A stretch of 64,000 nucleotides of DNA from Pandoraea aquatica (GTDB lineage Bacteria > Pseudomonadota > Gammaproteobacteria > Burkholderiales > Burkholderiaceae): NCBI RefSeq assembly GCF_902459565.1, contig NZ_CABPSN010000001.1, positions 806,001 to 870,000 on the forward strand, written 5' to 3'. Under the pieces are notes generated by a model, which did not search any database, was not told where the DNA came from, and saw only the letters and a list, made by a program, of their open reading frames with translations. Below, piece by piece: positions 1 through 10,515 of this stretch (positions within the stretch are counted from its first letter, which is position 1; every line of letters begins with the position of its first letter). Made by a program: the position numbers and the translations under genes.

Positions 1-359
1 TGCTGCTTAACCTGGCAATCAACGCTATGGATGCGATGGAGAATTCGGAGCAAAAAGATCGTGAACTATCCATCGGTACGCGCCACGCCAAGGAGGGTGT
101 CGAGCTCGTCGTCGCGGATCGGGGCACCGGTATTCCGGCTGACAACGTTGAGCAGTTGTTCGAAGCGTTCTATACCACCAAGGAGCGTGGCACGGGCCTT
201 GGTCTGTCCATCGTTCGCTCAATCGCCGATGCTCATCGAGGCGCCGTATCTGCACTGCCACGATCCGGCGGTGGCACCGAGTTCGTGCTCTGGTTGCCGT
301 TGGCATCGGCGGAATTTGATCAGACACATCTCCGTGGCAGTGAGGCAGCGAGCGTCTGA
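1..359 (+). CDS. Sensor histidine kinase, C-terminal ATP-binding part (5' truncated by window)
   Basis: The open frame enters from the left edge (codons start at base 3), so only about 118 C-terminal residues are visible. They form a HATPase_c domain: an N-box (NLAINAMDAM), a G1 box (DRGTGIP), an F-box (EAFYTTK) and a G2 box (GTGLGLSIVRSIADAH). This is the style of FixL/NtrB/DctB kinases, which phosphorylate a response regulator. The sensor region and the phosphorylated histidine are outside the window, so the stimulus is unknown. The next gene on the right is convergent. A stand-alone receiver gene lies 1.6 kb away, and a DNA-binding partner regulator may lie upstream of the window. Confidence 0.9.
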   Translation, partial: LLNLAINAMDAMENSEQKDRELSIGTRHAKEGVELVVADRGTGIPADNVEQLFEAFYTTKERGTGLGLSIVRSIADAHRGAVSALPRSGGGTEFVLWLPLASAEFDQTHLRGSEAASV

Positions 360-416
360 GCAGCGGGCGCACTGTTTCGCGCCCGCATCAGAGTCAGAAT
401 GTTCGCCTACACCATG

Positions 417-923
417 TCAATACGGCGCGTTGACCACGACGAATTGCGTACCTTGGGGTTGATACCACGTAGACCCGCACTGCTGGTAAATCATTCCGCG
501 ATAATTCACCGGCACGCAGCTTGCTGGCACCGAGTGCACCACCGCCCCGACGACCGCAGCCGTGACACCCACGGCCGCAGTGACTGCTGCGGCCGTCGCC
601 ACCGGGTGATAATCATCGTCCCAACCGCCGTGATAGCCACCACCATGGTTATCAACGTTTACGTTCACATTACGATTGACGTTGACGTTGTTCACGCTGG
701 TGTTTCTGACATTGTGGGTGCGCGCATCGGGCTGGCGATTCCCGACATTCTGGCGCGGTGCGGTGCGGCGAGCGGCGTTACCTCCCCCATCGTGACCGCG
801 CGCGTGTGCGCCAGCACCACCGCCTCTACCAGCGGCTTCCAACGGAGGGACTAAAGCGAGAGAAGCTGCTAGTACGGTCACGGCAACGCATGCCGGTACC
901 CAAGGGAAACGCCATTGAGTCAT
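417..923 (-). CDS. Secreted small protein with Asn-rich segment, DUF6515-like C-terminus
   Basis: 168 residues. The start chosen is the ATG at 923, directly ahead of a clear signal peptide (MTQWRFPWVP..., cleavage after LEAA). The mature protein has a Gly/His/Arg-rich stretch, then an Asn/Val repeat (VNNVNVNRNVNVNVDN), a hydrophobic Ala/Val segment that could insert in a membrane, and a C-terminal motif with two cysteines (CVPVNYRGMIYQQCGSTWYQP). That tail resembles the DUF6515 family; this is recognition by eye. The gene begins 4 bases after the stop of the DUF2092 gene, so the two form an operon. Function unknown; envelope location inferred. Confidence 0.8.
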   Translation of the reverse strand: MTQWRFPWVPACVAVTVLAASLALVPPLEAAGRGGGAGAHARGHDGGGNAARRTAPRQNVGNRQPDARTHNVRNTSVNNVNVNRNVNVNVDNHGGGYHGGWDDDYHPVATAAAVTAAVGVTAAVVGAVVHSVPASCVPVNYRGMIYQQCGSTWYQPQGTQFVVVNAPY

Positions 924-927
924 GATG

Positions 928-1716
928 TCACCCCTTGTTGGTAGGTAATTGAACCGCTTCGATCTTCTTTGTACCCGCAGGCGGCCGGAACTCAAAAGTC
1001 GAGGGCTGGATGGAGAAGCCGGGTTGCCAGGAAAGGATCGAGATCGATTGCGGACGCGCATCATCGTCGGTACGCGTGACCACTACTTTGCGCGGCAACG
1101 GCTTGTCACCACTGGCGATCCATATCTGCCAGTCGATTCCGGACTGCCGGAACGCGTAGTGGTCGCACAGATCGTTCCCGACGTAGTCCTGCCCCGCGAA
1201 CATTGCCGAGTCGAATTTCTGGTGCTGTGCTTCGGGCGTTCCCCACGAAAAGAGGTCGGCGAGTGGCAACTCCACGCCGTATCGCTCCCGCAACGCTTCG
1301 ACCAGTTTGCCCACTGTCCCTTGGAAGGGCACGGAGGCGTAGTACTTCTGCTGTGGAGAAAACAATGTTGCTGTCCTCCCGTCGTAAATGATCTCACGTT
1401 CCGTGCGTGCGCTCTTCATGACGGCGCGCAACCGGTTCGGCCGGTCGACTTCAAGCGTAGCCCGCGCGCTGTGCTGAAGTTTTTGTCCGTCGGCCAGCAC
1501 GCGTTCCCCGGTCAGCTCCGTAAACACGCGAAATCGCTGGAGCGATTGCAGATAACTTCCCATCGTGTGCAGCATCTGAACCGCGTCCGGATCGACGCCG
1601 TTCGCCGGGGCAACTGGCGCGCTCGCAGGTGCTCCCTGCTGGGCCCATGCCGTCGTTCCCGTCGATGCTGCGCACGTCGTAAGCAGCATTAAGATTGCCA
1701 ACGCCTGTCGTCTCAT
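928..1716 (-). CDS. DUF2092-family predicted periplasmic protein
   Basis: 262 residues with an N-terminal signal peptide (cleavage probably after TAWA, residue 25). The mature part reads like DUF2092: an early helix (MLHTMGSYLQSLQRF), then strands such as ATLEVDRPNRLRAVMKS, IIYDGRTATLFSPQQKYYA, and a C-terminal half with DWQIWI and PLPRKVVVT. The fold is related to LolA/LolB-like lipoprotein carriers, but no biochemical role is established. It is first in a two-gene operon with the small secreted protein and is transcribed away from the stand-alone receiver gene. The shared 226-bp intergenic region holds TTGCCC element (a). Confidence 0.85.
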   Translation of the reverse strand: MRRQALAILMLLTTCAASTGTTAWAQQGAPASAPVAPANGVDPDAVQMLHTMGSYLQSLQRFRVFTELTGERVLADGQKLQHSARATLEVDRPNRLRAVMKSARTEREIIYDGRTATLFSPQQKYYASVPFQGTVGKLVEALRERYGVELPLADLFSWGTPEAQHQKFDSAMFAGQDYVGNDLCDHYAFRQSGIDWQIWIASGDKPLPRKVVVTRTDDDARPQSISILSWQPGFSIQPSTFEFRPPAGTKKIEAVQLPTNKG

Positions 1717-1850
1717 CGTTACGCCTCAACTGGAAAAATACCGGTGATGAAAACGTGTCGATTTACCACATGCTCATGCGCGAGCGAGCGGCAGACACCC
1801 TCTGGCAATGTAGCTCGCAGAACCAGCAAAGCAAAGATGTTTGCCCGAAA

Positions 1851-1890
1851 TTGCCCAATGGGGAATTTGCATTGCCCCAAGTCCCAATAG
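1851..1890 (+). promoter_or_regulatory. TTGCCC element (a), compound operator
   Basis: Reads TTGCCC (1851-1856), N4, GGGAAT (1861-1866), N5, TTGCCC (1872-1877), then CAAGTCCCAATAG (1878-1890). A further TTGCCC lies at 1841-1846. The spacing equals that of element (b). It sits between the divergent DUF2092 and receiver genes, about 53 bp ahead of the receiver start. A plausible sigma-70 promoter follows (TTGCAT 1899, 17 bp, CTATAT 1922). It is one of four such elements in this region. Confidence 0.6.
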
Positions 1891-1942
1891 CCACTGTCTT
1901 GCATTCCAAAGAAAAATATAGCTATATGGACACGACCGCCTC

Positions 1943-2314
1943 ATGACCAAGTCAAGGAAGATCATCGTGATTCTTGAGGACGACACAGGTATGCGTCGCG
2001 CTGTCGAGCGCCTGCTGACGATCTCCGGATACCGTACGCGAGCCTTCTCGAGTGCGGGGGAAGACGGTGTCGCCGAGAGCATCCGCGCGGCCTACTGCGT
2101 GGTCGCGGACGTGAACCTTCCCGGGCTCTCAGGACCGGCGTTCTATCAGACGTTGCCCTCCCCTCGTCCGCCGGTCGTGTTCGTCACGGCGTACGACAAC
2201 GAGGCAGCGCGCGCCGAGATTCGGCAGTCGGGCGGCCAGGAACTATTGCCCAAACCGTTCCTTGGCAACGACCTGCTGTCTGCCATCGAGCGCGCCGCGC
2301 GCTCCCAGCCGTAA
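1943..2314 (+). CDS. Stand-alone response-regulator receiver protein
   Basis: 123 residues forming a single CheY-like receiver domain with no output domain. Acidic pocket D13/D14, phospho-acceptor D56 (in VADVNLPGLSG), T82 and K104 (LLPKPF) are all present, so it should be phosphorylatable. The sequence style (FSSAGE, DVNLPGLSG) is that of the receiver of FixJ-family regulators. Without a DNA-binding domain it probably acts as a phosphate sink or by protein contact with the kinase at the left edge; this is inference. It is preceded by TTGCCC element (a). No strong Shine-Dalgarno is seen. Confidence 0.9.
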   Translation: MTKSRKIIVILEDDTGMRRAVERLLTISGYRTRAFSSAGEDGVAESIRAAYCVVADVNLPGLSGPAFYQTLPSPRPPVVFVTAYDNEAARAEIRQSGGQELLPKPFLGNDLLSAIERAARSQP

Positions 2315-2387
2315 GCGTCGAGCGTGGCACGTATAAGCGGCGGTTCGGCGTGTCGGTACGCGCCGAACCGGCAATCCACGCGACGCG

Positions 2388-3800
2388 TTATACGCGGAAG
2401 TCGGCAGCCATGTCCTCGTCGCTACGCGCCACGAGCTTTCCGGAGCGGCATGCCTTTATGAACGCCTCGTAGTCTTTCTGGTTCTGCGTCGCATAGGCGA
2501 GCGCGTAGTCGGTCATCGCGTCGGCGAGGCGCTTCCCGTCGCCGATGTACGAGGATATTTCTACGGCCAGCCCCCCGGACTTGGCGTGCGCCCGGGCCAA
2601 CGCCCATCCGCATATTCGGGCGTAGCCCTGAAGAATCGTGTCGTTCATGCGTTCGACTTCCGCAGAGACCTTCATGTCGCGCAACTGCCGGAAGTAGAAG
2701 TGGCGTCCGTTCGGGCCGGTCGTCCAGCCGAGAAACGCGTCGCTGGCGGCCTGAAGCAACCGCTGCCCGGCAACGACACGAAGCCCCTGATGGTGCACTT
2801 TTCCCGTAGGGAAGTGGCGAGCAATGACCGATTCGCGGGCCTCTTTCACTTGCAGGAACAACGGCTTGCCGTGCGCGTCGACGAACAACATCACGAGACA
2901 GAAGGTCCCGACGCTGCCCACACCGACCACTTTGAAGGCGATGTCCTGAAGCTGAAACTGATCGATCAGCGCACGCCGGTCGACCGGGAGGGTGCCGACG
3001 TATTCGTTGAACGCCTGTGCCAGCTTGCCCTTCCAGGCTTGCGTGTTCGACCACGCGTGTGCGTTGCCCAGCAAGGAGTTCGGGCCAGCCGGATGGAACA
3101 GCGCGGGCGGCGCGTCCTGAATCACCCAGCGACCGTCCTCAAATACTGCAATCTTCTCGAGCATGGCTTCGTGCGAACGTCCGGCGGCCTTCTCTGCGGT
3201 CTTGCGGATCAGACGTCGTCCCTCACCGGTGACGGCCGCTTCCGCCATACGATCGAACGTCACGATCTCATGCCAGAGATCGAGCGCGCTGTAGCCCGCA
3301 TACTCTTGCATCCGCTTTCCGTATTCGGATACGGCCGACGTCACGATGTCGCGAATCGTGCTTCGATCGACGCTCATGTGTTCGCCTGCAATGGCAAAGC
3401 TCGCCGCAAGGCGCTTCAGATCCCACTCCCACGGACCCGGCGCGACCTCGTCGAAGTCATTCAGATCGAATACCAACTGGCGCTCCGGCGTTGCGAAGCC
3501 GCCGAAGTTCATGAGGTGGGCGTCGCCGCAAATGGGGAACGTGAACCCCGTGCTGGTCGTTCGCGCCAGATCGTGTGCCTGAAGGACGGCGCTGCCGCGA
3601 TAAAACGTAAAGGGCGAGACCGACATGCGGCCGTACCGAAGCGGCACAAGTGCGTCGACGCGGCCCGCGCTGTTCTGGCGCAGCAACGTCACAGGGTCGC
3701 GATCGACGTTGCCGATGTCCGACTGCTTCGAACGGGGCGCGCGCTCACGCGCCAGCTTTCCAGCGGCCTTGCGTTGGTCAAGCGTCAAATCACCGGGCAT
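2388..3800 (-). CDS. DUF2252 family protein
   Basis: 470 residues, full length for DUF2252. Conserved blocks are visible: FTFYRGSA (about residue 64), ICGDAHLMNFGGF (about 90-102), LVFDLNDFDE (about 108-117) and the C-terminal HFYFRQLRDMK. The GDAH.NFG plus D.NDFD pattern recalls the catalytic and metal-binding loops of kinase-like folds, so a phosphotransfer activity is possible but unproven. Its start overlaps the end of the GGDEF gene by 16 bases, so the two are co-translated as one unit. Confidence 0.88.
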   Translation of the reverse strand: MPGDLTLDQRKAAGKLARERAPRSKQSDIGNVDRDPVTLLRQNSAGRVDALVPLRYGRMSVSPFTFYRGSAVLQAHDLARTTSTGFTFPICGDAHLMNFGGFATPERQLVFDLNDFDEVAPGPWEWDLKRLAASFAIAGEHMSVDRSTIRDIVTSAVSEYGKRMQEYAGYSALDLWHEIVTFDRMAEAAVTGEGRRLIRKTAEKAAGRSHEAMLEKIAVFEDGRWVIQDAPPALFHPAGPNSLLGNAHAWSNTQAWKGKLAQAFNEYVGTLPVDRRALIDQFQLQDIAFKVVGVGSVGTFCLVMLFVDAHGKPLFLQVKEARESVIARHFPTGKVHHQGLRVVAGQRLLQAASDAFLGWTTGPNGRHFYFRQLRDMKVSAEVERMNDTILQGYARICGWALARAHAKSGGLAVEISSYIGDGKRLADAMTDYALAYATQNQKDYEAFIKACRSGKLVARSDEDMAADFRV

Positions 3801-5299
3801 GGGGCACCTCCTGAGGTTGCGTGAATGCAGACGCGGTCGCGACCGCCACTCTTGGCTGCGTAAAGGGCTTCGTCCGCCGCTTGCAGCAGCGCTTCGGGCG
3901 TGCCGGTCGGCAACACCCCTGTAGCGGCGACCCCGATGCTTATCGTCACATGGCCTTGCGGCGTGCCTTCGTGGGCGATGGCCAATGAGCGCACAGCCGT
4001 GCGCACGCGCTCGGCGACGTCGCGTGCGCCATTAGCGTCGGTGTTTGGCAGCACTACCATGAACTCCTCGCCACCGTAGCGTCCGGCGAAATCGCCAGGC
4101 CGCCGGATCGTGCGCCCGATTGCGTGACTCACCGCGACCAGCGTGTCGTCACCCGCCGGATGGCCGTATTGGTCGTTGAACGTCTTGAAATGATCTATAT
4201 CGATGAAGAGCAGTGCGAGGGGCGCATGCTCACGCAACGAGCGACGCCATTCCCTGTCGTAGGTCTCGTCCAGCGTGCGTCGGTTAGCCAGCCCCGTCAG
4301 TGGATCGGTGCTCGCCATTCGGTGCAACTCGGCCTCGGCGACATAGCGCCGCTGGCGCTGCTTCCTGAGCAAGACGGAGAGAATCAGACAGGCCACGCCG
4401 AGCGCCGCGGTCAGCCCGCCCACCCACAGCGCCCGTTCTCGCCACGAGGCATATATCTCGCTTCTGGGGGCGCGAATCTCAATCAGCATCGGTAGGCCAG
4501 CGAGTGGCTGTCGGACGTAGAGAAATTCGCCATCCGCGCCCGTGACCGAAGCGTCCGAGGGCCTGGCCGTGACAGCGACGAGAGGCACGGCGCTTGCGAC
4601 AGTGGTGCCGGCCGCGGTCGACGTGATAAGTACCGTGCCATCGTTGCGCATTAACGAGACGATGCCTTTCTCCCCCGGAGCAAGTCCCGCGAATTGCCGC
4701 GAGAAATAGCGAGCGTCTATCGTCACGATGCTAACGCCAGCAAACTCGCCGCCGTCTCGCCGGATGGTGTGCGTCATCAGCAGACCGGGGCCCGCACTCG
4801 CCGGGCATAACGCCGCCGATGTCGAGATTGAAAGTGCATCGTTGTTGCTTTGGCGGTGTGCATTGACGATGCGCTGGGCGAAGCGAAGATCGATGCAGCC
4901 CGTCGAAGGCAGCGCTTCATAAACGACCTCCCCCGCTTCACTCATGATCACTGCCTGCACATAGGTCTGTGATGTCGCGTTCGCTGGATCGCCAAACTGC
5001 GCCATACAGTTCGAAAGCTGTGCGCTCGGATCGCCATGACCTGCTGCACCGAGTGCGTCGAGTGCGCGCGTACAGGCGGCGATGTCATCGCCCACCGTGC
5101 GTGCAGCGAGCATCGCCACGCGCAGGTTCGCATCGCGTGCGTCGTCGCGAACCGCCAGACGGCCTTCATAAAGCAGCGTTGCGCGTACACCGATCACGAT
5201 GAGTGCAGCAACGATCACCACAACTACCGTCAGGCCGAGCGCGTTAAACCAGCGTCCGGCCTTCTGTGACGGAGGGTGTGAAATATTCGGCGAATTCAT
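3785..5299 (-). CDS. Membrane-anchored diguanylate cyclase (GGDEF)
   Basis: 504 residues. A first membrane segment (about 20-42) and a second (about 293-313) enclose a periplasmic sensor region with the look of a dCache/PAS-like domain. The cytoplasmic C-terminus has a GGDEF domain starting at STDPLTGLANRR, the signature GGEEF, and an RxxD inhibitory site (RPGD) five residues before it. It should make cyclic di-GMP from two GTP and be product-inhibited. It is upstream of, and overlaps, the DUF2252 gene. TTGCCC element (b) lies in the divergent region ahead of it. The signal sensed is unknown. Confidence 0.93.
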   Translation of the reverse strand: MNSPNISHPPSQKAGRWFNALGLTVVVVIVAALIVIGVRATLLYEGRLAVRDDARDANLRVAMLAARTVGDDIAACTRALDALGAAGHGDPSAQLSNCMAQFGDPANATSQTYVQAVIMSEAGEVVYEALPSTGCIDLRFAQRIVNAHRQSNNDALSISTSAALCPASAGPGLLMTHTIRRDGGEFAGVSIVTIDARYFSRQFAGLAPGEKGIVSLMRNDGTVLITSTAAGTTVASAVPLVAVTARPSDASVTGADGEFLYVRQPLAGLPMLIEIRAPRSEIYASWRERALWVGGLTAALGVACLILSVLLRKQRQRRYVAEAELHRMASTDPLTGLANRRTLDETYDREWRRSLREHAPLALLFIDIDHFKTFNDQYGHPAGDDTLVAVSHAIGRTIRRPGDFAGRYGGEEFMVVLPNTDANGARDVAERVRTAVRSLAIAHEGTPQGHVTISIGVAATGVLPTGTPEALLQAADEALYAAKSGGRDRVCIHATSGGAPCPVI

Positions 5300-5380
5300 G
5301 TTCCCCTACGCACCATGATCAATGCGCCCCATTCTTTTCGTAATCGCCTCTCGAGGCTATCGGGAGTGGGGGCAAGTCAT

Positions 5381-5420
5381 TTGCCCGTAAGGGCAAAGCG
5401 ATTGCCCCTGACACCGATGG
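5381..5420 (+). promoter_or_regulatory. TTGCCC element (b), compound operator
   Basis: TTGCCC (5381-5386), GTAA, GGGCAA (5391-5396), N5, TTGCCC (5402-5407), then CTGACACCGATGG (5408-5420). The central TTTGCCC-GTAA-GGGCAAA is a perfect dyad. An extra GGGCAA at 5370-5375, again 5 bp away, makes a four-half-site array. It lies between the divergent cyclase/DUF2252 operon and the beta-barrel gene, about 73 bp ahead of the latter. Confidence 0.65.
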
Positions 5421-5493
5421 TCCGCTGGCGGTCCAGTCGCAACAATGGCGAATAATGAAGAGTGCATCGCAACATTAATGACGCGAGTGGAGT

Positions 5494-6510
5494 ATGGCTG
5501 CAATACGACACAAAAGTTTGCGTAGTAGCCAGCGTGCGCCGAGACATGATTTGCACAGACGGCTTGCCGTGTGGCTGACTACGTTGGCGAGCCTGTTTTG
5601 CCTAACGACGATCACCCCGGCAGCGTTCGCTCAATTTTCGCCGCTGCGTGTCGGCACCGATGTCCGCAGTCATGCGAACAGCGTGCTGGCTATCATGAGC
5701 TACACGACTGTTCCCGACGTCACCACAAGCTCGTTGTCTATCAATAATGGATCGACCGGGAATCCCGGCTTCTGGCAAACGCAGTTGGGCGGCGGCTTCA
5801 CGCTCAGTCGCTCGTTTCCGCTCTACCTCGAAGGTACGCTCGCCTATAGCCGGTACGATCCGACCTTCTTGGCCTCAGATGGCACAGAGTCGCGCGCACT
5901 CCCAGTCCGCTGGAATACGCTAAGCACCACCATCGGTGTGGGATGGGACATTCGTCTGGCCGACGAACTGGTGCTCCGGCCGATTCTGAACGGCAGCCTG
6001 GGGCGCGTCGCCAGTGACTTGCGCGTCGGCGAAACACTACTGAACCGAGCAACAGATCTCGACGCACAATTTCTCAAGGATGGTGCGCTGAATGCGTACG
6101 GCCTTGGCGGTTCGCTGATGCTCGACTTCGAGCACTATCGCGAGGCTTACGAAGTCGACGTCGAACTGCGTCTGACGAACATCCATCTGAGAAGTTTCGG
6201 CAGCTCGTCCGCCGGTGTGCAAGGCAGCGCCAACGCCCAACAGTTCAGCCTTTGGTCGAGATGGCGTGCACCGACCGGCCTGCGTGCGCTTGATCGGCCG
6301 GTGCGCTACGTGCTTGAGGCGGCCTATTCTCAATACTTCGGGGACAGTGCCGGCGTGCTGGGCTTCAACAATCTGACGTCGCTGGGTGTCGGGTTGGAAC
6401 TCGACAGCAGCAAGTATCCTGTGATCGTCACCCGTACACGCCTAATGGCGCGCTACGTCTTCGGCCGTAACGTGCAAGGCGTCTCGTTTGGCTTCGCCAT
6501 GAGTTTCTGA
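5494..6510 (+). CDS. Outer-membrane beta-barrel protein (solitary autotransporter-barrel type)
   Basis: 338 residues. A long n-region precedes the hydrophobic core of a signal peptide (cleavage near AAFAQ, about residue 47). The rest alternates polar and aromatic residues in strand-like blocks (FTLSRSFPLYLEGTLAYSRY, YEVDVELRLTNIHL) and ends in phenylalanine (GVSFGFAMSF), the usual signal for outer-membrane assembly by BAM. It resembles the solitary autotransporter-like barrel family (Omp_AT); that is by-eye assignment. A Shine-Dalgarno-like GGAG precedes the ATG. TTGCCC element (b) is upstream. Confidence 0.8.
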   Translation: MAAIRHKSLRSSQRAPRHDLHRRLAVWLTTLASLFCLTTITPAAFAQFSPLRVGTDVRSHANSVLAIMSYTTVPDVTTSSLSINNGSTGNPGFWQTQLGGGFTLSRSFPLYLEGTLAYSRYDPTFLASDGTESRALPVRWNTLSTTIGVGWDIRLADELVLRPILNGSLGRVASDLRVGETLLNRATDLDAQFLKDGALNAYGLGGSLMLDFEHYREAYEVDVELRLTNIHLRSFGSSSAGVQGSANAQQFSLWSRWRAPTGLRALDRPVRYVLEAAYSQYFGDSAGVLGFNNLTSLGVGLELDSSKYPVIVTRTRLMARYVFGRNVQGVSFGFAMSF

Positions 6511-6535
6511 ATAGCCCTATCTCCATCCACGCCTG

Positions 6536-7738
6536 TTAGATCAATGCTTTAGCGATCTTCCCGAGTATGGCAGTCAGCGGCAGTTGCAGGGCAGCAACGT
6601 AAAGCATCGGTACAGCGACCGGCACCACAATCGCCAAGATCGACAACTTGCTCAACGGCACGGATCGCATGTTTTTCACGGCGTCGTAGACGGCGTGAAT
6701 GTCCGCGACAGGCCCCAGTTCGGGGGCATCGAGAATCTCCGGTTTTCCGATGTCCTGATGCAATATCCAGCGCTCGTGCACGAGGCGGTCATGATGCGCT
6801 ACCAGACTCCCATATTCGAATATGGCGCTCCGTTTCAGCCGTCCCAAGGGTATGGCGAGTGGCAGTAACGGCAAGAGAAATACTACTGAGATCAGCGCAG
6901 CGCTGGCGATCAGCAGCGTCTTCATCTGCATGGCGCTCGCGCCGTGATAGACGACCTCGTGCGCAAACGACGCGGCGACGACTGCCGAAATGGCAAACGC
7001 TACCGGACTGAAGATAAATGCCATGCGCTCCACGAAACTCAGTCCGGCCGCTCGGTCGGGATGCGAGGGTACTAGTGCGAGTGGCAGCCTCCCAATCCGG
7101 AACAGCAGAATGAACAGCAGGCAAGCGCGCCAAAGCCATGCGAGCAGTAGCACGGTGAAGAGCGGCCGGACGACGAGCACGAACCACCAGCCGCCGAAGG
7201 TTATATCGGCGATGTCATCGCCATGGTTCATCCACACTACGTCTTCGGCATCGCCTAACAGTGCTCGGGTCGTTGACCATGCGATGGTCACCCCGAAAAT
7301 GACAACCCACGGCAATGCACGATCACGCAGCCGTGCCACACGCGAAAGCTCGCGCTGAAAGGACGGCAGCGTTTGCTCAGTTACACATCCCGATTCGACA
7401 AAGTACTTCAGGAGCGGAGGCATTAGATTCTGAGCAACCCCCTCGGCCACCACCATCAGCGGGATAGCTATTAGGCAACGCGCATGAATACCAAAATGCG
7501 CCGCGAGCGTGTCGTCGCCAGCACCTTGCACCGCGCGGCCGGTGAGCACAGCCCACACGGCCAACGGCAGCCAGGTTACTGCGGCAAAAATCACGGCACG
7601 GCGCCAAACACCCATGCCGACCGAAGGAATGAGATGCGCACGACGCTGAAGATGAAACCCCAAATCGCCCTGGACAAGTGACAGCTCCACCTCCGGGACT
7701 TCGGAACGATCGGACCGTCTTTTGGTTCCGTTACCCAT
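6536..7738 (-). CDS. Polytopic inner-membrane protein of unknown function
   Basis: 400 residues from the ATG at 7738, which has a good Shine-Dalgarno (AGGAGA). An earlier in-frame ATG at 7828 would extend into TTGCCC element (c) and is not used here. About six to seven hydrophobic segments are visible (for example AVIFAAVTWLPLAVWAVL, FVLVVRPLFTVLLLAWLW, LLIASAALISVVFLLPLLPL and the C-terminal LSILAIVVPVAVPMLYVAAL), with soluble stretches in between. No family was recognised. It is divergent from the MscS-like gene, and both flank element (c), which suggests a shared role at the membrane under stress. Confidence 0.75.
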   Translation of the reverse strand: MGNGTKRRSDRSEVPEVELSLVQGDLGFHLQRRAHLIPSVGMGVWRRAVIFAAVTWLPLAVWAVLTGRAVQGAGDDTLAAHFGIHARCLIAIPLMVVAEGVAQNLMPPLLKYFVESGCVTEQTLPSFQRELSRVARLRDRALPWVVIFGVTIAWSTTRALLGDAEDVVWMNHGDDIADITFGGWWFVLVVRPLFTVLLLAWLWRACLLFILLFRIGRLPLALVPSHPDRAAGLSFVERMAFIFSPVAFAISAVVAASFAHEVVYHGASAMQMKTLLIASAALISVVFLLPLLPLAIPLGRLKRSAIFEYGSLVAHHDRLVHERWILHQDIGKPEILDAPELGPVADIHAVYDAVKNMRSVPLSKLSILAIVVPVAVPMLYVAALQLPLTAILGKIAKALI

Positions 7739-7809
7739 GAATGTCTCCTTGTCTGGATGTGTGACCCAGTGTTGCAGGAGTGTAGTTTTGCGCCGGATAC
7801 GCCCTCGCG

Positions 7810-7849
7810 CCATCGGGGTTTCGGGCAATCAATTTGCCCCCCGGGGCAT
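7810..7849 (-). promoter_or_regulatory. TTGCCC element (c), compound operator
   Basis: Read on the minus strand: ATGCCC (7849-7844), N4, GGGCAA (7839-7834), N5, TTGCCC (7828-7823), then GAAACCCCGATGG (7822-7810). Spacing and trailing block match elements (a) and (b). It points toward the polytopic membrane gene, ending about 72 bp before its start, and lies about 60-100 bp upstream of the divergent MscS-like gene. Confidence 0.65.
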
Positions 7850-7907
7850 CCCGGTTAGCGCGAAAATCGCCACTGATTCGCCGTCGCACTTCAATTTAGG
7901 AGCATCC

Positions 7908-9644
7908 ATGATGATCCACGTCGCCCCACGCGCGATTGCGTCAGGCAGTTCGCAAAACGACACGGTGTGTTTGTCATGCTCGAAGATCGGCGCCATGTTT
8001 GTGCTTCTCGTGTCGGCCTTCGCTGTCCTTCTGGTGACGGTTGCGAGCGTTTCGCTGGCTCATGCACAAGCGCCCCGTCCTGCTGCAGCGTCGGATGCGC
8101 CGGCCGCCGATCTCCGATATATGGATCGCCCCATCACGACGTTCCGCGCGTCGCTCACCGGGGCTACGCCGCAACAGCGCGCCGAGCGCTCCTATGCCGC
8201 ACTGGACGCGCTGCCCGAGAGCATTCTGCGCTTGCCGACGCAAGCAGTTCAGGGCTCGCTCGGTCAGAATCGCGGCGTCGTCTTCCGGCGCGGTGACCGC
8301 ATTCTCTTCGCCTTGCTGGAGGGCGACGTCGACGAGGCAGACAATCGACCGTTCGAGGTCATCGCTAGCGAAACCCAGACGCGGCTCGACGCCGCGCTTG
8401 CGGCCCGGCAGGCGCAACTGCATTGGCCCAACATCATTCGTGGCATTCTGCTGTCGCTGCTCGCGACGGCCGTGCTGGTGATATTGGTGTGGACGGCCGG
8501 ACGACTGCAAAGCCGTCTGCAAACGCGCCTTCAGTACGCCATCGAGGCGCATTTGCTTCGCCGCACTTCCAGAACATTCGACTGGACCGGTTCGGCGTTT
8601 CATCTGGTGCGGCAGATCGTTCAGTTGCTCTTCCTGTTTTTCGTCGCCGCGCTCATATACGTCTATCTGATCTACGTACTGGAGCGGTTCCCGGTATCGG
8701 AGCCCATGGGCGAGCGTCTGAGCGATTTCCTCTGGAACCTGCTCAACACCTTTGCACTGGGCATTGTCAATGCGATTCCGGGGCTCATTGCCATCGCCGT
8801 CATATTTCTTCTGACGCGCGCCCTGCACAATCTCATCAACAATATTTTTGCAGCGATCCAGCAACGCCGTCTCAATGTGCCCGGATTGCATCCAGACACG
8901 GCGGACGCCTCGCGCCGCATTGTGGCCATCGTCGTGTGGGCTTTGGCGCTGACGTTCGCGTACCCGTATTTTCCGGGCGCGCAGAGCGATGTGTTCAAGG
9001 GGCTGAGCGTGTTGCTCGGTCTGATGGTGTCGCTGGGGTCAGCGGGCATCGTCAATCAACTGATGAGCGGCATTGTCGTCACCTATAGCCGGGCATTTCA
9101 GGCGGGCGATATGGTGCAGATCGGCGACACGGCAGGCGTGGTGGTGAGCGTGGATACCTTGTCGGTGAAGTTGACGAACGTGAGGCGGGAAGAGGTCACG
9201 ATTCCGAACGCGGTTGTCGTCGGGGCCATAGTGCACAATTTTTCGAGTCGTGACGGCAAAGCGCCGGCGCTGGTGGTCACATCGGTGACGATCGGATACG
9301 ACACCCCATGGCGACAGGTGCAAGCCATGCTGTGCCTCGCGGCAGCACGAACCCAAAGCATTGCGCAGTCGCCGCAGCCATTTGTATTGCAGCGTTCGCT
9401 GTCGGACTTCTATATCGAGTACGACCTGCATGTCGCGCCCGTCAATCCGGCGCAGCGTCTCCTCATGCTGAGTGAGCTGCATAGCCAGATCGTCGACGTC
9501 TTCAACGAATTCGGCGTGCAGATCATGTCGCCCCATTTCGAGGAGCAGCCGGAAGCGCCGGTGATTATTCCGCCGGATGGTTGGACTCCTTCCCCCGCAA
9601 AACCGGCGTCGGACTCGAGCAAGACGAACAGCACCGAGGTTTGA
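7908..9644 (+). CDS. MscS-family mechanosensitive channel
   Basis: 578 residues from the ATG at 7908, chosen because TAGGAG lies just upstream; the open frame extends further 5' but would run through element (c). A signal-like hydrophobic stretch ends at AHAQ. A periplasmic region follows, then about five membrane segments. The pore-lining helix and MscS beta domain are clear (GLMVSLGSAGIVNQLMSGIVVTYSRAF, then GDMVQIGDTAGVVVSVDTLSVKL and TIPNAVVVG). The C-terminal alpha/beta vestibule domain follows (YDTPWRQVQAML). It should open under membrane tension to release solutes on osmotic downshock. A Pro/Ser-rich tail ends the protein. Confidence 0.93.
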   Translation: MMIHVAPRAIASGSSQNDTVCLSCSKIGAMFVLLVSAFAVLLVTVASVSLAHAQAPRPAAASDAPAADLRYMDRPITTFRASLTGATPQQRAERSYAALDALPESILRLPTQAVQGSLGQNRGVVFRRGDRILFALLEGDVDEADNRPFEVIASETQTRLDAALAARQAQLHWPNIIRGILLSLLATAVLVILVWTAGRLQSRLQTRLQYAIEAHLLRRTSRTFDWTGSAFHLVRQIVQLLFLFFVAALIYVYLIYVLERFPVSEPMGERLSDFLWNLLNTFALGIVNAIPGLIAIAVIFLLTRALHNLINNIFAAIQQRRLNVPGLHPDTADASRRIVAIVVWALALTFAYPYFPGAQSDVFKGLSVLLGLMVSLGSAGIVNQLMSGIVVTYSRAFQAGDMVQIGDTAGVVVSVDTLSVKLTNVRREEVTIPNAVVVGAIVHNFSSRDGKAPALVVTSVTIGYDTPWRQVQAMLCLAAARTQSIAQSPQPFVLQRSLSDFYIEYDLHVAPVNPAQRLLMLSELHSQIVDVFNEFGVQIMSPHFEEQPEAPVIIPPDGWTPSPAKPASDSSKTNSTEV

Positions 9645-9664
9645 CGGGCACCACCGCCTTCGAA

Positions 9665-9705
9665 TTGCCCTTTGGGGCAAGCGAGGCTGCCCGAAATACC
9701 AATAG
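9665..9705 (+). promoter_or_regulatory. TTGCCC element (d), compound operator
   Basis: TTGCCC (9665-9670), TTTG, GGGCAA (9675-9680), N6, CTGCCC (9687-9692), then GAAATACCAATAG (9693-9705). The second gap is one base longer than in the other three copies, and the third half-site has C for T. The trailing CCAATAG block is the same as in element (a). It lies between the MscS-like gene and the SYLF lipoprotein gene, about 125 bp ahead of the latter's start. Confidence 0.55.
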
Positions 9706-9829
9706 CGATGTCGTGTCACAGAACTGACACTGCAACGCAGACGCCTGCGGTGGCCTATGCCGACATAGAAGACGGGCGTCGCGCGTCCACCTATCGGTGA
9801 GCGATCCAATCCACTTTGCGGAGTCAGTC

Positions 9830-10417
9830 ATGCAAACACGTCGTCACTTCGTAGGCGCTTCCGTCGTCGCTGCCGCCCTGGTCGTGGCTTTCTCGGGGTG
9901 CTCCACGACCGGCAGCGCGCCGGCCACGCCTGAAGCCAATGCGTCACGTAAGCAGTCCATCGACGCGGCCGCCGAAAGCACGCTCTCGCGACTGTTCTCT
10001 ACGGTGCCCGGTTCGCGCGAGCTTGTGGGTAAAGCGCGTGGCGTGCTGGTGTTCCCTGAGGTTATTCAGGCAGGGGTTATTGTCGGCGGACAGCACGGCG
10101 ACGGTGTGCTGCGTGTCGGGACAACCTCGTCGGGCTATTACAGCATTTCGTCCGCTTCGGTGGGCGCGCAACTGGGGATGCAGTCGAAGTCGATGGTCTA
10201 TCTGTTCATGACGCAGGAGGCGTTCGACAAATTCCGCAATGCCAGCGGTTGGTCGGTCGGAGCGGACGCTTCTGTGGCGGTCGTCAAACTCGGGGCCAAC
10301 GGTCAGGTCGACACGACGACGACTACGCATCCGGTTGAAGTGTTCGTGATGACCAATAGCGGACTGATGGGTGATCTCTCGCTCTCGGGGACCAAGATCT
10401 CGCGGCTGGATATCTAA
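9830..10417 (+). CDS. SYLF (YSC84-like) domain lipoprotein
   Basis: 195 residues from the ATG at 9830 (GCGGAG upstream). A short signal peptide ends in a lipobox-like FSGC, so the mature protein should be lipidated at C24. The rest is a SYLF domain: AKGVLVFPEV-type core (here ARGVLVFPEVIQAGVIVGGQ), GDGVLR, YYSISSASVGAQLG and the VYLFMTQEAFDKFR helix. SYLF domains bind lipids or phosphoinositides in eukaryotes; bacterial copies are stress-linked envelope proteins of unclear function. It follows TTGCCC element (d). Confidence 0.9.
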   Translation: MQTRRHFVGASVVAAALVVAFSGCSTTGSAPATPEANASRKQSIDAAAESTLSRLFSTVPGSRELVGKARGVLVFPEVIQAGVIVGGQHGDGVLRVGTTSSGYYSISSASVGAQLGMQSKSMVYLFMTQEAFDKFRNASGWSVGADASVAVVKLGANGQVDTTTTTHPVEVFVMTNSGLMGDLSLSGTKISRLDI

Positions 10418-10478
10418 GGGCAATACGCCCGCGCCCATTGCGTTATCTGGGGTGGCGGGCGCGTCTTGGTTGTTGCGG

Positions 10479-10515
10479 CATTCACGTCGGGTGCGAGGCG
10501 ATCCCGACGTGAATG
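10479..10515. terminator. 12-13 bp inverted-repeat hairpin after the SYLF gene
   Basis: ATTCACGTCGGG (10480-10491) and CCCGACGTGAAT (10503-10514) pair perfectly around an 11-base loop. No U-run follows on either strand, so it may be a transcript-end stabiliser or a factor-dependent terminator rather than a classical intrinsic terminator. Confidence 0.45.

What the first reader, a model, noticed from the sequence alone, without database searches (positions are those of the whole stretch)
1841..9705. A shared compound operator marks a candidate regulon in four consecutive intergenic regions
Seen directly: elements at 1851-1890, 5381-5420, 7849-7810 (minus) and 9665-9705 share TTGCCC-N4-GGGCAA-N5-TTGCCC (6 bp for the last gap in the fourth) followed by a 13-base block with consensus SAAAYMCCRATRG, always in register. 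Three half-sites plus a trailing motif, conserved four times in 8 kb and found only between genes, is far beyond chance. Each points at a gene 53-125 bp away and sits between divergent units or ahead of a monocistron. Inference: one regulator, probably a FixJ/LuxR-type partner of the kinase cut by the left edge, controls the DUF2092 operon, the receiver, the cyclase-DUF2252 operon, the beta-barrel, the membrane protein, MscS and SYLF genes together.
Basis: partly seen in the sequence, partly recalled or inferred. Interest (0 to 1): 0.78.

Follow-up and report, generated by a model that had tools for sequence, protein, structure and literature searches.

The report
FixJ-type regulon with composite activator promoters
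Four gaps between neighbouring genes carry the same rigid switch-and-promoter signature, which in related bacteria occurs almost only together with one particular signal-response protein encoded next door, so it is very probably that protein's binding site and marks a small, apparently undescribed set of co-regulated envelope and signalling genes.

Summary
The element lies at 1851, 5381, 7849(-) and 9665, and is not chance. In the 5.96-Mb genome 11 arms match with up to 3 mismatches; the reversed control has 0. All lie in two clusters: the window's and a diverged duplicate.

Corrections. (1) The element at 5357-5420 is bidirectional, so the window holds five arms. (2) The trailing motif overlaps the -35 position of a core promoter whose -10-like box (ANAMT, 17-18 bp on) was missed: present at 5 of 5 window arms and 39 of 56 non-redundant arms. 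This geometry fits class II activation. (3) Arms face the receiver, GGDEF-DUF2252, beta-barrel, 400-aa membrane protein and SYLF genes; none faces DUF2092 or MscS.

The regulator is very probably the FixJ-type response regulator just left of the window. In 299 genomes of the family, 20 of 20 with a close orthologue (E <= 1.1e-53) have the motif, against 1 of 279 others. Its recognition helix differs from that of 6 homologues in motif-less genomes. Exact copies were found only in Pandoraea, Paraburkholderia, Caballeronia and Burkholderia records. My literature searches found no description. Binding, signal and transcription starts are untested.

The parts
1851..1890 (+). Arm A1: half-sites 1851-1856, 1861-1866, 1872-1877, trailing block 1882-1890; faces the receiver gene
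   Evidence: profile E 9.2e-13 (this arm was in the profile's training set)
1888..1917 (+). Core promoter of A1: -35-like position 1888-1893 and -10-like AAAAAT 1912-1917 (18-bp spacing)
   Evidence: with the column statistics; inferred, no mapped start
1943..2314 (+). Single-domain receiver (123 aa), target of A1
   Evidence: Pfam Response_reg 5.7e-15; commonest target class, 24 of 95 unique arms
5381..5420 (+). Arm A2f, faces the beta-barrel gene; -10-like AACAAT at 5441-5446
   Evidence: 0 mismatches; E 7.9e-13 (in the training set)
5357..5396 (-). Arm A2r, faces the GGDEF gene; -10-like AAGAAT at 5336-5331; shares the central palindrome 5381-5396 with A2f
3785..5299 (-). GGDEF diguanylate cyclase, target of A2r
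   Evidence: Pfam GGDEF 6.1e-50
2388..3800 (-). DUF2252 protein; overlaps the GGDEF gene by 16 bases and presumably follows it in one unit
   Evidence: Pfam DUF2252 2.4e-147; operon inferred
5494..6510 (+).
   Evidence: no Pfam or NCBIfam match; the name was not tested here
7810..7849 (-). Arm A3, faces the 400-aa membrane protein gene; -10-like AAAACT at 7789-7784
   Evidence: 1 mismatch; E 1.1e-13 (in the training set)
6536..7738 (-).
   Evidence: no Pfam or NCBIfam match
9665..9705 (+). Arm A4 (1-bp insertion before the third half-site), faces the SYLF gene; -35-like TAGCGA 9703-9708, -10-like GACACT 9726-9731
   Evidence: E 1.6e-08 with a profile built without it
9830..10417 (+). SYLF/Ysc84 lipoprotein, target of A4
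   Evidence: Pfam Ysc84 5.4e-14; NCBIfam BPSL1445 family 5.6e-84
1..359 (+). C-terminal end of the sensor histidine kinase; the rest of the kinase and the FixJ-type response regulator (C1:803754-804434) lie left of the window
928..1716 (-). DUF2092 gene: neighbour of A1 but not faced by an arm
   Evidence: Pfam DUF2092 1.5e-63; no minus-strand profile match there
7908..9644 (+). MscS-type channel gene: neighbour of A3 but not faced by an arm
   Evidence: Pfam MS_channel_2nd 2.4e-15; no plus-strand profile match upstream

Best explanation
The elements are composite, activator-dependent promoters of one two-component regulon. The sensor kinase cut by the left edge phosphorylates the FixJ-type response regulator encoded next to it. 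The regulator binds the inverted repeat TTGCCC-N4-GGGCAA, centred near -64, and the third TTGCCC half-site with the block behind it, around -44. From there it contacts RNA polymerase at a weak core promoter (TRGC-like at the -35 position, 17-18 bp, ANAMT at -10) and switches on the receiver, GGDEF-DUF2252, beta-barrel, membrane-protein and SYLF units. The divergent pair at 5299/5494 shares the central repeat. Shown by sequence: the elements, their register, the core-promoter boxes, their conservation, and the near one-to-one link to the regulator. Inferred: binding, activation rather than repression, transcription starts, sigma factor, signal, and a feedback role for the receiver. The confidence given is for 'this regulator binds these sites and they define its regulon'; for class II activation with sigma-70 in particular I would say about 0.65.
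For: 11 arms in the genome against 0 reversed-control matches. Among 101 relatives the motif (up to 3 mismatches) is in 10 of 10 genomes with an orthologue at E <= 2.7e-62 and in 0 of 91 others. Among 299 family genomes the motif (up to 2 mismatches) is in 20 of 20 with an orthologue at E <= 1.1e-53 and in 1 of 279 others; naive Fisher p 3e-30. Sites can lie far from the regulator: in G011 the one arm with up to 3 mismatches is 2 Mb away, and unlinked arms exist in G006, G010, G018 and G021. Recognition helix ERT[IV]K[TS]CRA in 28 of 28 regulators recovered from the fetched loci of motif genomes and in 0 of 6 examined from motif-less genomes. A.A[AC]T belongs to a hexamer starting at column 60 or 61 in 39 of 56 non-redundant arms, and occurs at most once in any other column from 41 to 129. 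In orthologous and paralogous promoters half-sites differ at 52 of 1440 compared positions, the block and -35 core at 52 of 720, -10 at 29 of 480, but spacers at 429 of 1040. Of five sites outside these statistics, A4, its duplicate B4, G315 and G020 have the -10-like box at the expected column; the G007 scar has an extra base in the block.
Against: No binding, expression or start-site data. The p-value ignores shared ancestry, and the 101 and 299 sets overlap. With the profile, 5 of 23 regulator-less Pandoraea genomes have one match each at E <= 0.1: two strong (G007, G020, about 5e-8 to 7e-8) and three partial (G003, G005, G014; 0.009 to 0.095). G315, of another genus, has one complete-looking site and only a 43% homologue. 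G162, without the motif, has a helix close to the signature (KLCRS). Half-site conservation is partly built in, since arms were chosen by a pattern with at most 3 mismatches; the -10 box was not in the pattern. The block after the third half-site does not resemble a reverse half-site. T occurs in only 2 of 56 arms at column 60, unusual for sigma-70 (the comparison with sigma-70 is recalled). FixLJ is reported to repress nif genes in Rhodopseudomonas palustris (PMC13327599, abstract start in a listing), so the family does not only activate.
Confidence: 0.85

Rival explanations
1. Same sites, but bound by a different regulator encoded elsewhere that is inherited with the cluster; the adjacent response regulator is a bystander.
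For: Regulator and most sites are linked in clusters, so co-occurrence could be co-inheritance. G007, G020 and G315 have a site without a close orthologue.
Against: Unlinked arms (G006, G010, G011, G018, G021) occur in genomes with the orthologue. Of the 30 proteins of the two clusters and their flanks that I scanned, only this regulator and its duplicate have a DNA-binding domain. The recognition helix separates 28 motif-genome regulators from 6 others.
Confidence: 0.08
2. The downstream boxes (CCRATRGC, about 18 bp, CGANAMT) are the promoter of an alternative sigma factor, and the regulator acts together with that factor.
For: T is almost absent at column 60 (2 of 56), and conservation extends upstream of the -35 position over CC.A.
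Against: TRGC and ANAMT sit at sigma-70 spacing of 17-18 bp. No sigma factor was among the 30 proteins scanned, but I did not search the genome for one.
Confidence: 0.15
3. The sites are operators for repression: the regulator covers the -35 region and shuts the promoters.
For: The element overlaps the -35 position. FixLJ is reported to repress nif genes in Rhodopseudomonas palustris (PMC13327599, listing only).
Against: The core promoter is far from consensus, as at activator-dependent promoters. DevR, whose proximal site also overlaps the -35 element, activates (PMC3029386, passages); that FixJ activates fixK is recalled.
Confidence: 0.1
4. A dispersed repetitive element or a chance repeat left by segment duplication.
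For: The genome does hold a duplicated segment with 74.5-90.3% DNA identity.
Against: Half-sites are conserved while spacers differ at 41% of compared positions; arms precede ten unrelated gene families and others, in the same register, in 28 genomes.
Confidence: 0.01

Closest known systems
FixLJ regulon of rhizobia (FixJ at the fixK promoter)
   Same: FixJ-type receiver-LuxR regulator next to a kinase; FixJ protects -69 to -44 and -57 to -31 at fixK, and its sites are 16-18-bp imperfect palindromes (PMC4999443, passages read). NCBIfam FixJ is the regulator's best model (171 bits).
   Different: Score is below the FixJ cut-off of 255 bits. The kinase has a periplasmic domain related to ABC substrate-binding proteins; FixL's haem sensor is described in PMC4999443. 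Operator sequence and targets differ.
StyR (solved structure 1yio)
   Same: Closest solved relative of the regulator by sequence, E 7.6e-38, just ahead of FixJ 5xso at 1.4e-37 (the listing calls 1yio 'response regulatory protein', the name StyR is recalled).
   Different: Styrene catabolism regulator (recalled); its operator was not compared here.
DevR/DosR regulon of Mycobacterium tuberculosis
   Same: NarL-family regulator that binds two or more close-packed sites cooperatively, the proximal one overlapping the -35 element, and activates (PMC3029386, passages read).
   Different: Different operator, signal and targets.
FixT feedback receiver of Caulobacter
   Same: A single-domain receiver tied to a FixJ-type system; FixT inhibits the kinase FixL (PMC7078487, abstract read). 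Here a receiver is the commonest target (24 of 95 unique arms).
   Different: FixT has a 4-Cys Fe-S motif. The 24 receivers called here hold 1-3 cysteines except two longer-called ones with 4 and 5. Kinase inhibition is not tested.

Membership tests
FixJ (orthologue, NCBIfam NF006900) | Whole-protein score at or above the equivalog cut-off of 255 bits | tested here: not met
   171.3 bits
FixJ-type (receiver plus LuxR HTH) response regulators | Response_reg and GerE domains in one protein | tested here: met
   5.3e-24 and 7e-15 in a 226-aa protein
FixJ-type (receiver plus LuxR HTH) response regulators | Histidine kinase encoded next to it | tested here: met
   kinase frame with HisKA and HATPase_c adjoins the regulator gene; its longest frame overlaps the regulator's end, true start not determined
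FixJ-type (receiver plus LuxR HTH) response regulators | Phosphorylation-dependent binding to the proposed operator | not testable with these tools
   needs protein and DNA
Regulon (co-regulated transcription units) | Same operator upstream of several units, linked and unlinked, conserved with the regulator across species | tested here: met
Class II activator promoters | Activator site adjoining or overlapping the -35 element, with a -10 at sigma-70 spacing | tested here: inconclusive
   geometry fits in 39 of 56 non-redundant arms; start sites not mapped
Tandem operator of two full palindromes | Fourth half-site resembling GGGCAA at columns 31-36 | tested here: not met
   reverse half-site score at column 31 is not above background; only the spacing fits
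FixT-like feedback receiver | Single-domain receiver controlled by the system and inhibiting its kinase | not testable with these tools
   control is predicted; inhibition needs a kinase assay

The most novel reading that the evidence does not exclude
A portable, self-contained signalling cassette of Burkholderiaceae: regulator, kinase, a FixT-like feedback receiver and rigid composite promoters travel, duplicate and decay together. The sensor domain can be lost (cluster B and four other genomes) while the promoters stay intact, and the core promoter has given up the first T of -10 so that it is silent without the regulator. The frequent sulfatase, formylglycine-enzyme and alkyl-sulfatase targets suggest a link to sulfate esters.
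Probability: 0.25. Interest if true: 0.65.

Novelty: new member of a known kind. Interest (0 to 1): 0.5.

Why it matters
It gives a FixJ-type system, for which I found no described role, a defined operator, a promoter anatomy and a target list, all from sequence, and so makes it testable with a reporter in laboratory E. coli. The motif is specific: 18 exact matches in a scan of 84,980 species genomes, all in records named Pandoraea, Paraburkholderia, Caballeronia or Burkholderia. It puts several poorly known families (the 400-aa membrane protein, the putative beta-barrel, DUF2252, DUF1254) into one context. It also shows a regulon that has been duplicated in one genome and left a scar in another.

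Tried and rejected
Degenerate fourth half-site: the spacing fits (same 4-bp gap, 21 bp from the first palindrome) but the sequence does not resemble a reverse half-site; left open. DUF2092 and MscS as targets: rejected on orientation. Autoregulation: no strong arm upstream of the regulator in this genome, only a weak partial match at C1:803441-803474, E 0.087, on the minus strand facing the divergent gene. FGE family as the reason for the motif: rejected; of 22 FGE copies in 15 of 32 Pandoraea genomes only the copies of G006, G009, G010 and G018 with 87-100% identity to the query have an arm upstream. Plasmid search of window 1-10500: no match. Paper searches: 0 papers for DUF2092 with response regulator, for spelled-out forms of the motif and for formylglycine-generating enzyme with response regulator and Paraburkholderia. 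In the listings (20 shown of 119; 10; 1; 3) I saw no title or abstract start about this operator, but opened none of those papers; only open-licence papers are held. The sensor-domain structure job had not finished at the last look, so no fold search was run; a sequence profile matched solved substrate-binding proteins 6hni, 3lft and 3lkv instead.

Rows left out of counts: the named loci L050, L056 and L062-L066 were dropped because their contig lengths equal those of G281, G050, G255, G185, G006 and G021. Seven arms are not among the 95: three of G181, one of G230 and two of G334 lay outside the stretches fetched, and that of G315 was fetched only later. One identical arm was merged (96 to 95). 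56 non-redundant arms were kept by a 60% identity cut on variable columns; 47 of these went into the profile. Regulators of DHOC27, Ac-20340 and hiiakae and the second one of G230 were not in the helix comparison, and 6 of the 9 genomes with weaker homologues were. Genome searches score a limited number of first-look candidates per genome (9, 29, 150), so weak matches can be missed.
Full report
What is there. The four elements exist at the stated places. The 27-base core TTGCCC-N4-GGGCAA-N5-TTGCCC, with up to 3 mismatches, gives 4 matches in the window against a mean of 0.10 in 100 shuffles; element 4 is not among them because of its 6-bp gap. With the trailing block added, the 5.96-Mb genome has 11 arms with up to 3 mismatches and 0 for the reversed control. 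By the start codons I took they lie between genes; longest open frames with earlier starts overlap four of them. They fall in two clusters: C1:797433-813849, which runs into the window (it begins at C1:806001), and C1:266239-276482. The second is a diverged duplicate of the first; aligned blocks are 74.5-90.3% identical in DNA.

A missed arm. On the minus strand of element 2, 5396-5357 is a perfect second arm with its own trailing block. It faces the GGDEF gene, while 5381-5420 faces the beta-barrel gene. The palindrome 5381-5396 is shared. The counterpart in the duplicate, C1:269738-269801, has the same form.

A core promoter behind the arms. Aligning 72 arms from this and related genomes showed conservation beyond the pattern. 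In 56 non-redundant arms out of 95 unique ones, A.A[AC]T belongs to a -10-like hexamer starting at column 60 in 27 and at column 61 in 12; in any other column from 41 to 129 it occurs at most once. Columns 37-42 (TRGC-like) are then at the -35 position, 17-18 bp upstream, so the trailing block overlaps the -35 region. All five window arms have the box. With a start 6-8 bp after it (inferred), the palindrome is centred near -64 and the third half-site with its block near -44. Of five sites outside these statistics, four (A4, its duplicate B4, G315, G020) carry the box at the expected column; the scar in G007 has an extra base in the block. In orthologous and paralogous promoters (four sets of 8, 7, 7 and 5) half-sites differ at 52 of 1440 compared positions, the block and -35 core at 52 of 720, the -10 at 29 of 480; spacers differ at 429 of 1040 and the 17-bp stretch at 516 of 1360. 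The half-site figure is helped by the way arms were chosen; the -10 figure is not.

The regulator. Next to the kinase cut by the left edge lies a 226-aa receiver-LuxR protein (C1:803754-804434). The kinase has a periplasmic domain related to ABC substrate-binding proteins, HisKA and HATPase_c. Among 101 relatives, the 10 genomes with the motif are the same 10 that have an orthologue at E <= 2.7e-62; five genomes with a 41-49% homologue have no motif. Among 299 genomes of the family, which include the same Pandoraea genomes, 20 of 20 with an orthologue at E <= 1.1e-53 have the motif, and one of 279 others has it; four genomes with a 45-49% homologue do not. The recognition helix reads ERT[IV]K[TS]CRA in 28 of 28 regulators recovered from fetched loci of motif genomes and in none of 6 from motif-less genomes, though that of G162 (KLCRS) comes close. 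Arms can be far from the regulator: in G011 the one arm with up to 3 mismatches is 2 Mb away, though the profile finds two weaker ones near it. So the sites can act in trans.

Exceptions. A promoter-length profile built from 47 arms found 14 matches at E <= 0.1 in the window's genome, all in the two clusters. All 9 Pandoraea genomes with the regulator have three or more. Of 23 without, five have one match: two strong (5e-8 and 7e-8, in G020 and G007) and three partial (0.009 to 0.095, in G003, G005 and G014). In G007 it is a scar: the receiver promoter runs straight into a stretch that by eye resembles the SYLF gene, with a DUF2092-like frame beside it. In G020 it precedes a frame that by eye resembles the DUF1254 proteins. 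Neither has a close orthologue (best 41%). G315, in another genus, has one complete-looking site before a 597-aa frame that looks like a transporter, and only a 43% homologue. I read the first two as relics after loss of the regulator; G315 is unexplained.

Targets. Of 95 unique arms in 28 genomes, 80 face genes that match my reference proteins (from this genome's clusters, FGE from G006): receiver 24, FGE 11, beta-barrel 10, 400-aa membrane protein 8, GGDEF 7, alkyl sulfatase 6, arylsulfatase 4, SYLF 4, DUF1254 types 4, a 309-aa protein type 2. Fifteen face others, among them HAD hydrolases, Bestrophin-like, Band_7, 17-kDa antigen, Omp85-like and a TPS-domain secreted protein. Gene calls behind arms are mechanical. 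In the window the oriented targets are receiver, GGDEF-DUF2252, beta-barrel, membrane protein and SYLF; DUF2092 and MscS have no arm facing them.

Spread. An exact scan of 84,980 species genomes gave 18 matches in 17 stretches, all in records named Paraburkholderia, Caballeronia, Burkholderia sp. or Pandoraea (records near the window's own may be left out).

What is known. The regulator's best NCBIfam model is FixJ, at 171 bits against a cut-off of 255; nearest solved structures by sequence are StyR and FixJ. FixJ at fixK (PMC4999443, passages) and DevR (PMC3029386, passages) bind in the same promoter region. FixT (PMC7078487, abstract) is a single-domain receiver that inhibits its kinase, a plausible model for the receiver here. 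My searches found no paper on this operator (listings only).

Verdict. It is a well-supported but experimentally untested new regulon of a known kind.

Noticed in passing
L013:3839-4792 (C1:263839-264792), and kinases in L075, L081, L083, L087: The duplicate kinase lacks the periplasmic sensor domain while keeping the N-terminal hydrophobic stretches and the kinase; kinases of G011, G021, G024 and G050 lack it too.
   Followed up: partly
C1:263000-275000 against window 1-10400 and its left flank: A diverged duplicate of the cluster in the same genome; aligned blocks 74.5-90.3% identical.
   Followed up: yes
L134 (G007 C1:2665530): A deletion scar: the receiver promoter runs into a stretch that by eye resembles SYLF, in a genome without a close orthologue of the regulator.
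   Followed up: partly
L076:4104-4172 (G018): An operator persists although the frame behind it does not match the 400-aa membrane protein; its -10-like box reads AAGACC.
   Followed up: partly
L012:7422-14087: Alkyl sulfatase, radical SAM/SPASM, HAD hydrolase and arylsulfatase genes beside the regulator; the alkyl sulfatase and arylsulfatase are faced by arms.
   Followed up: partly
L103:9383-19045 (G181): An arm faces a 3220-aa TPS-domain secreted protein with 28 YDG-domain stretches.
   Followed up: no
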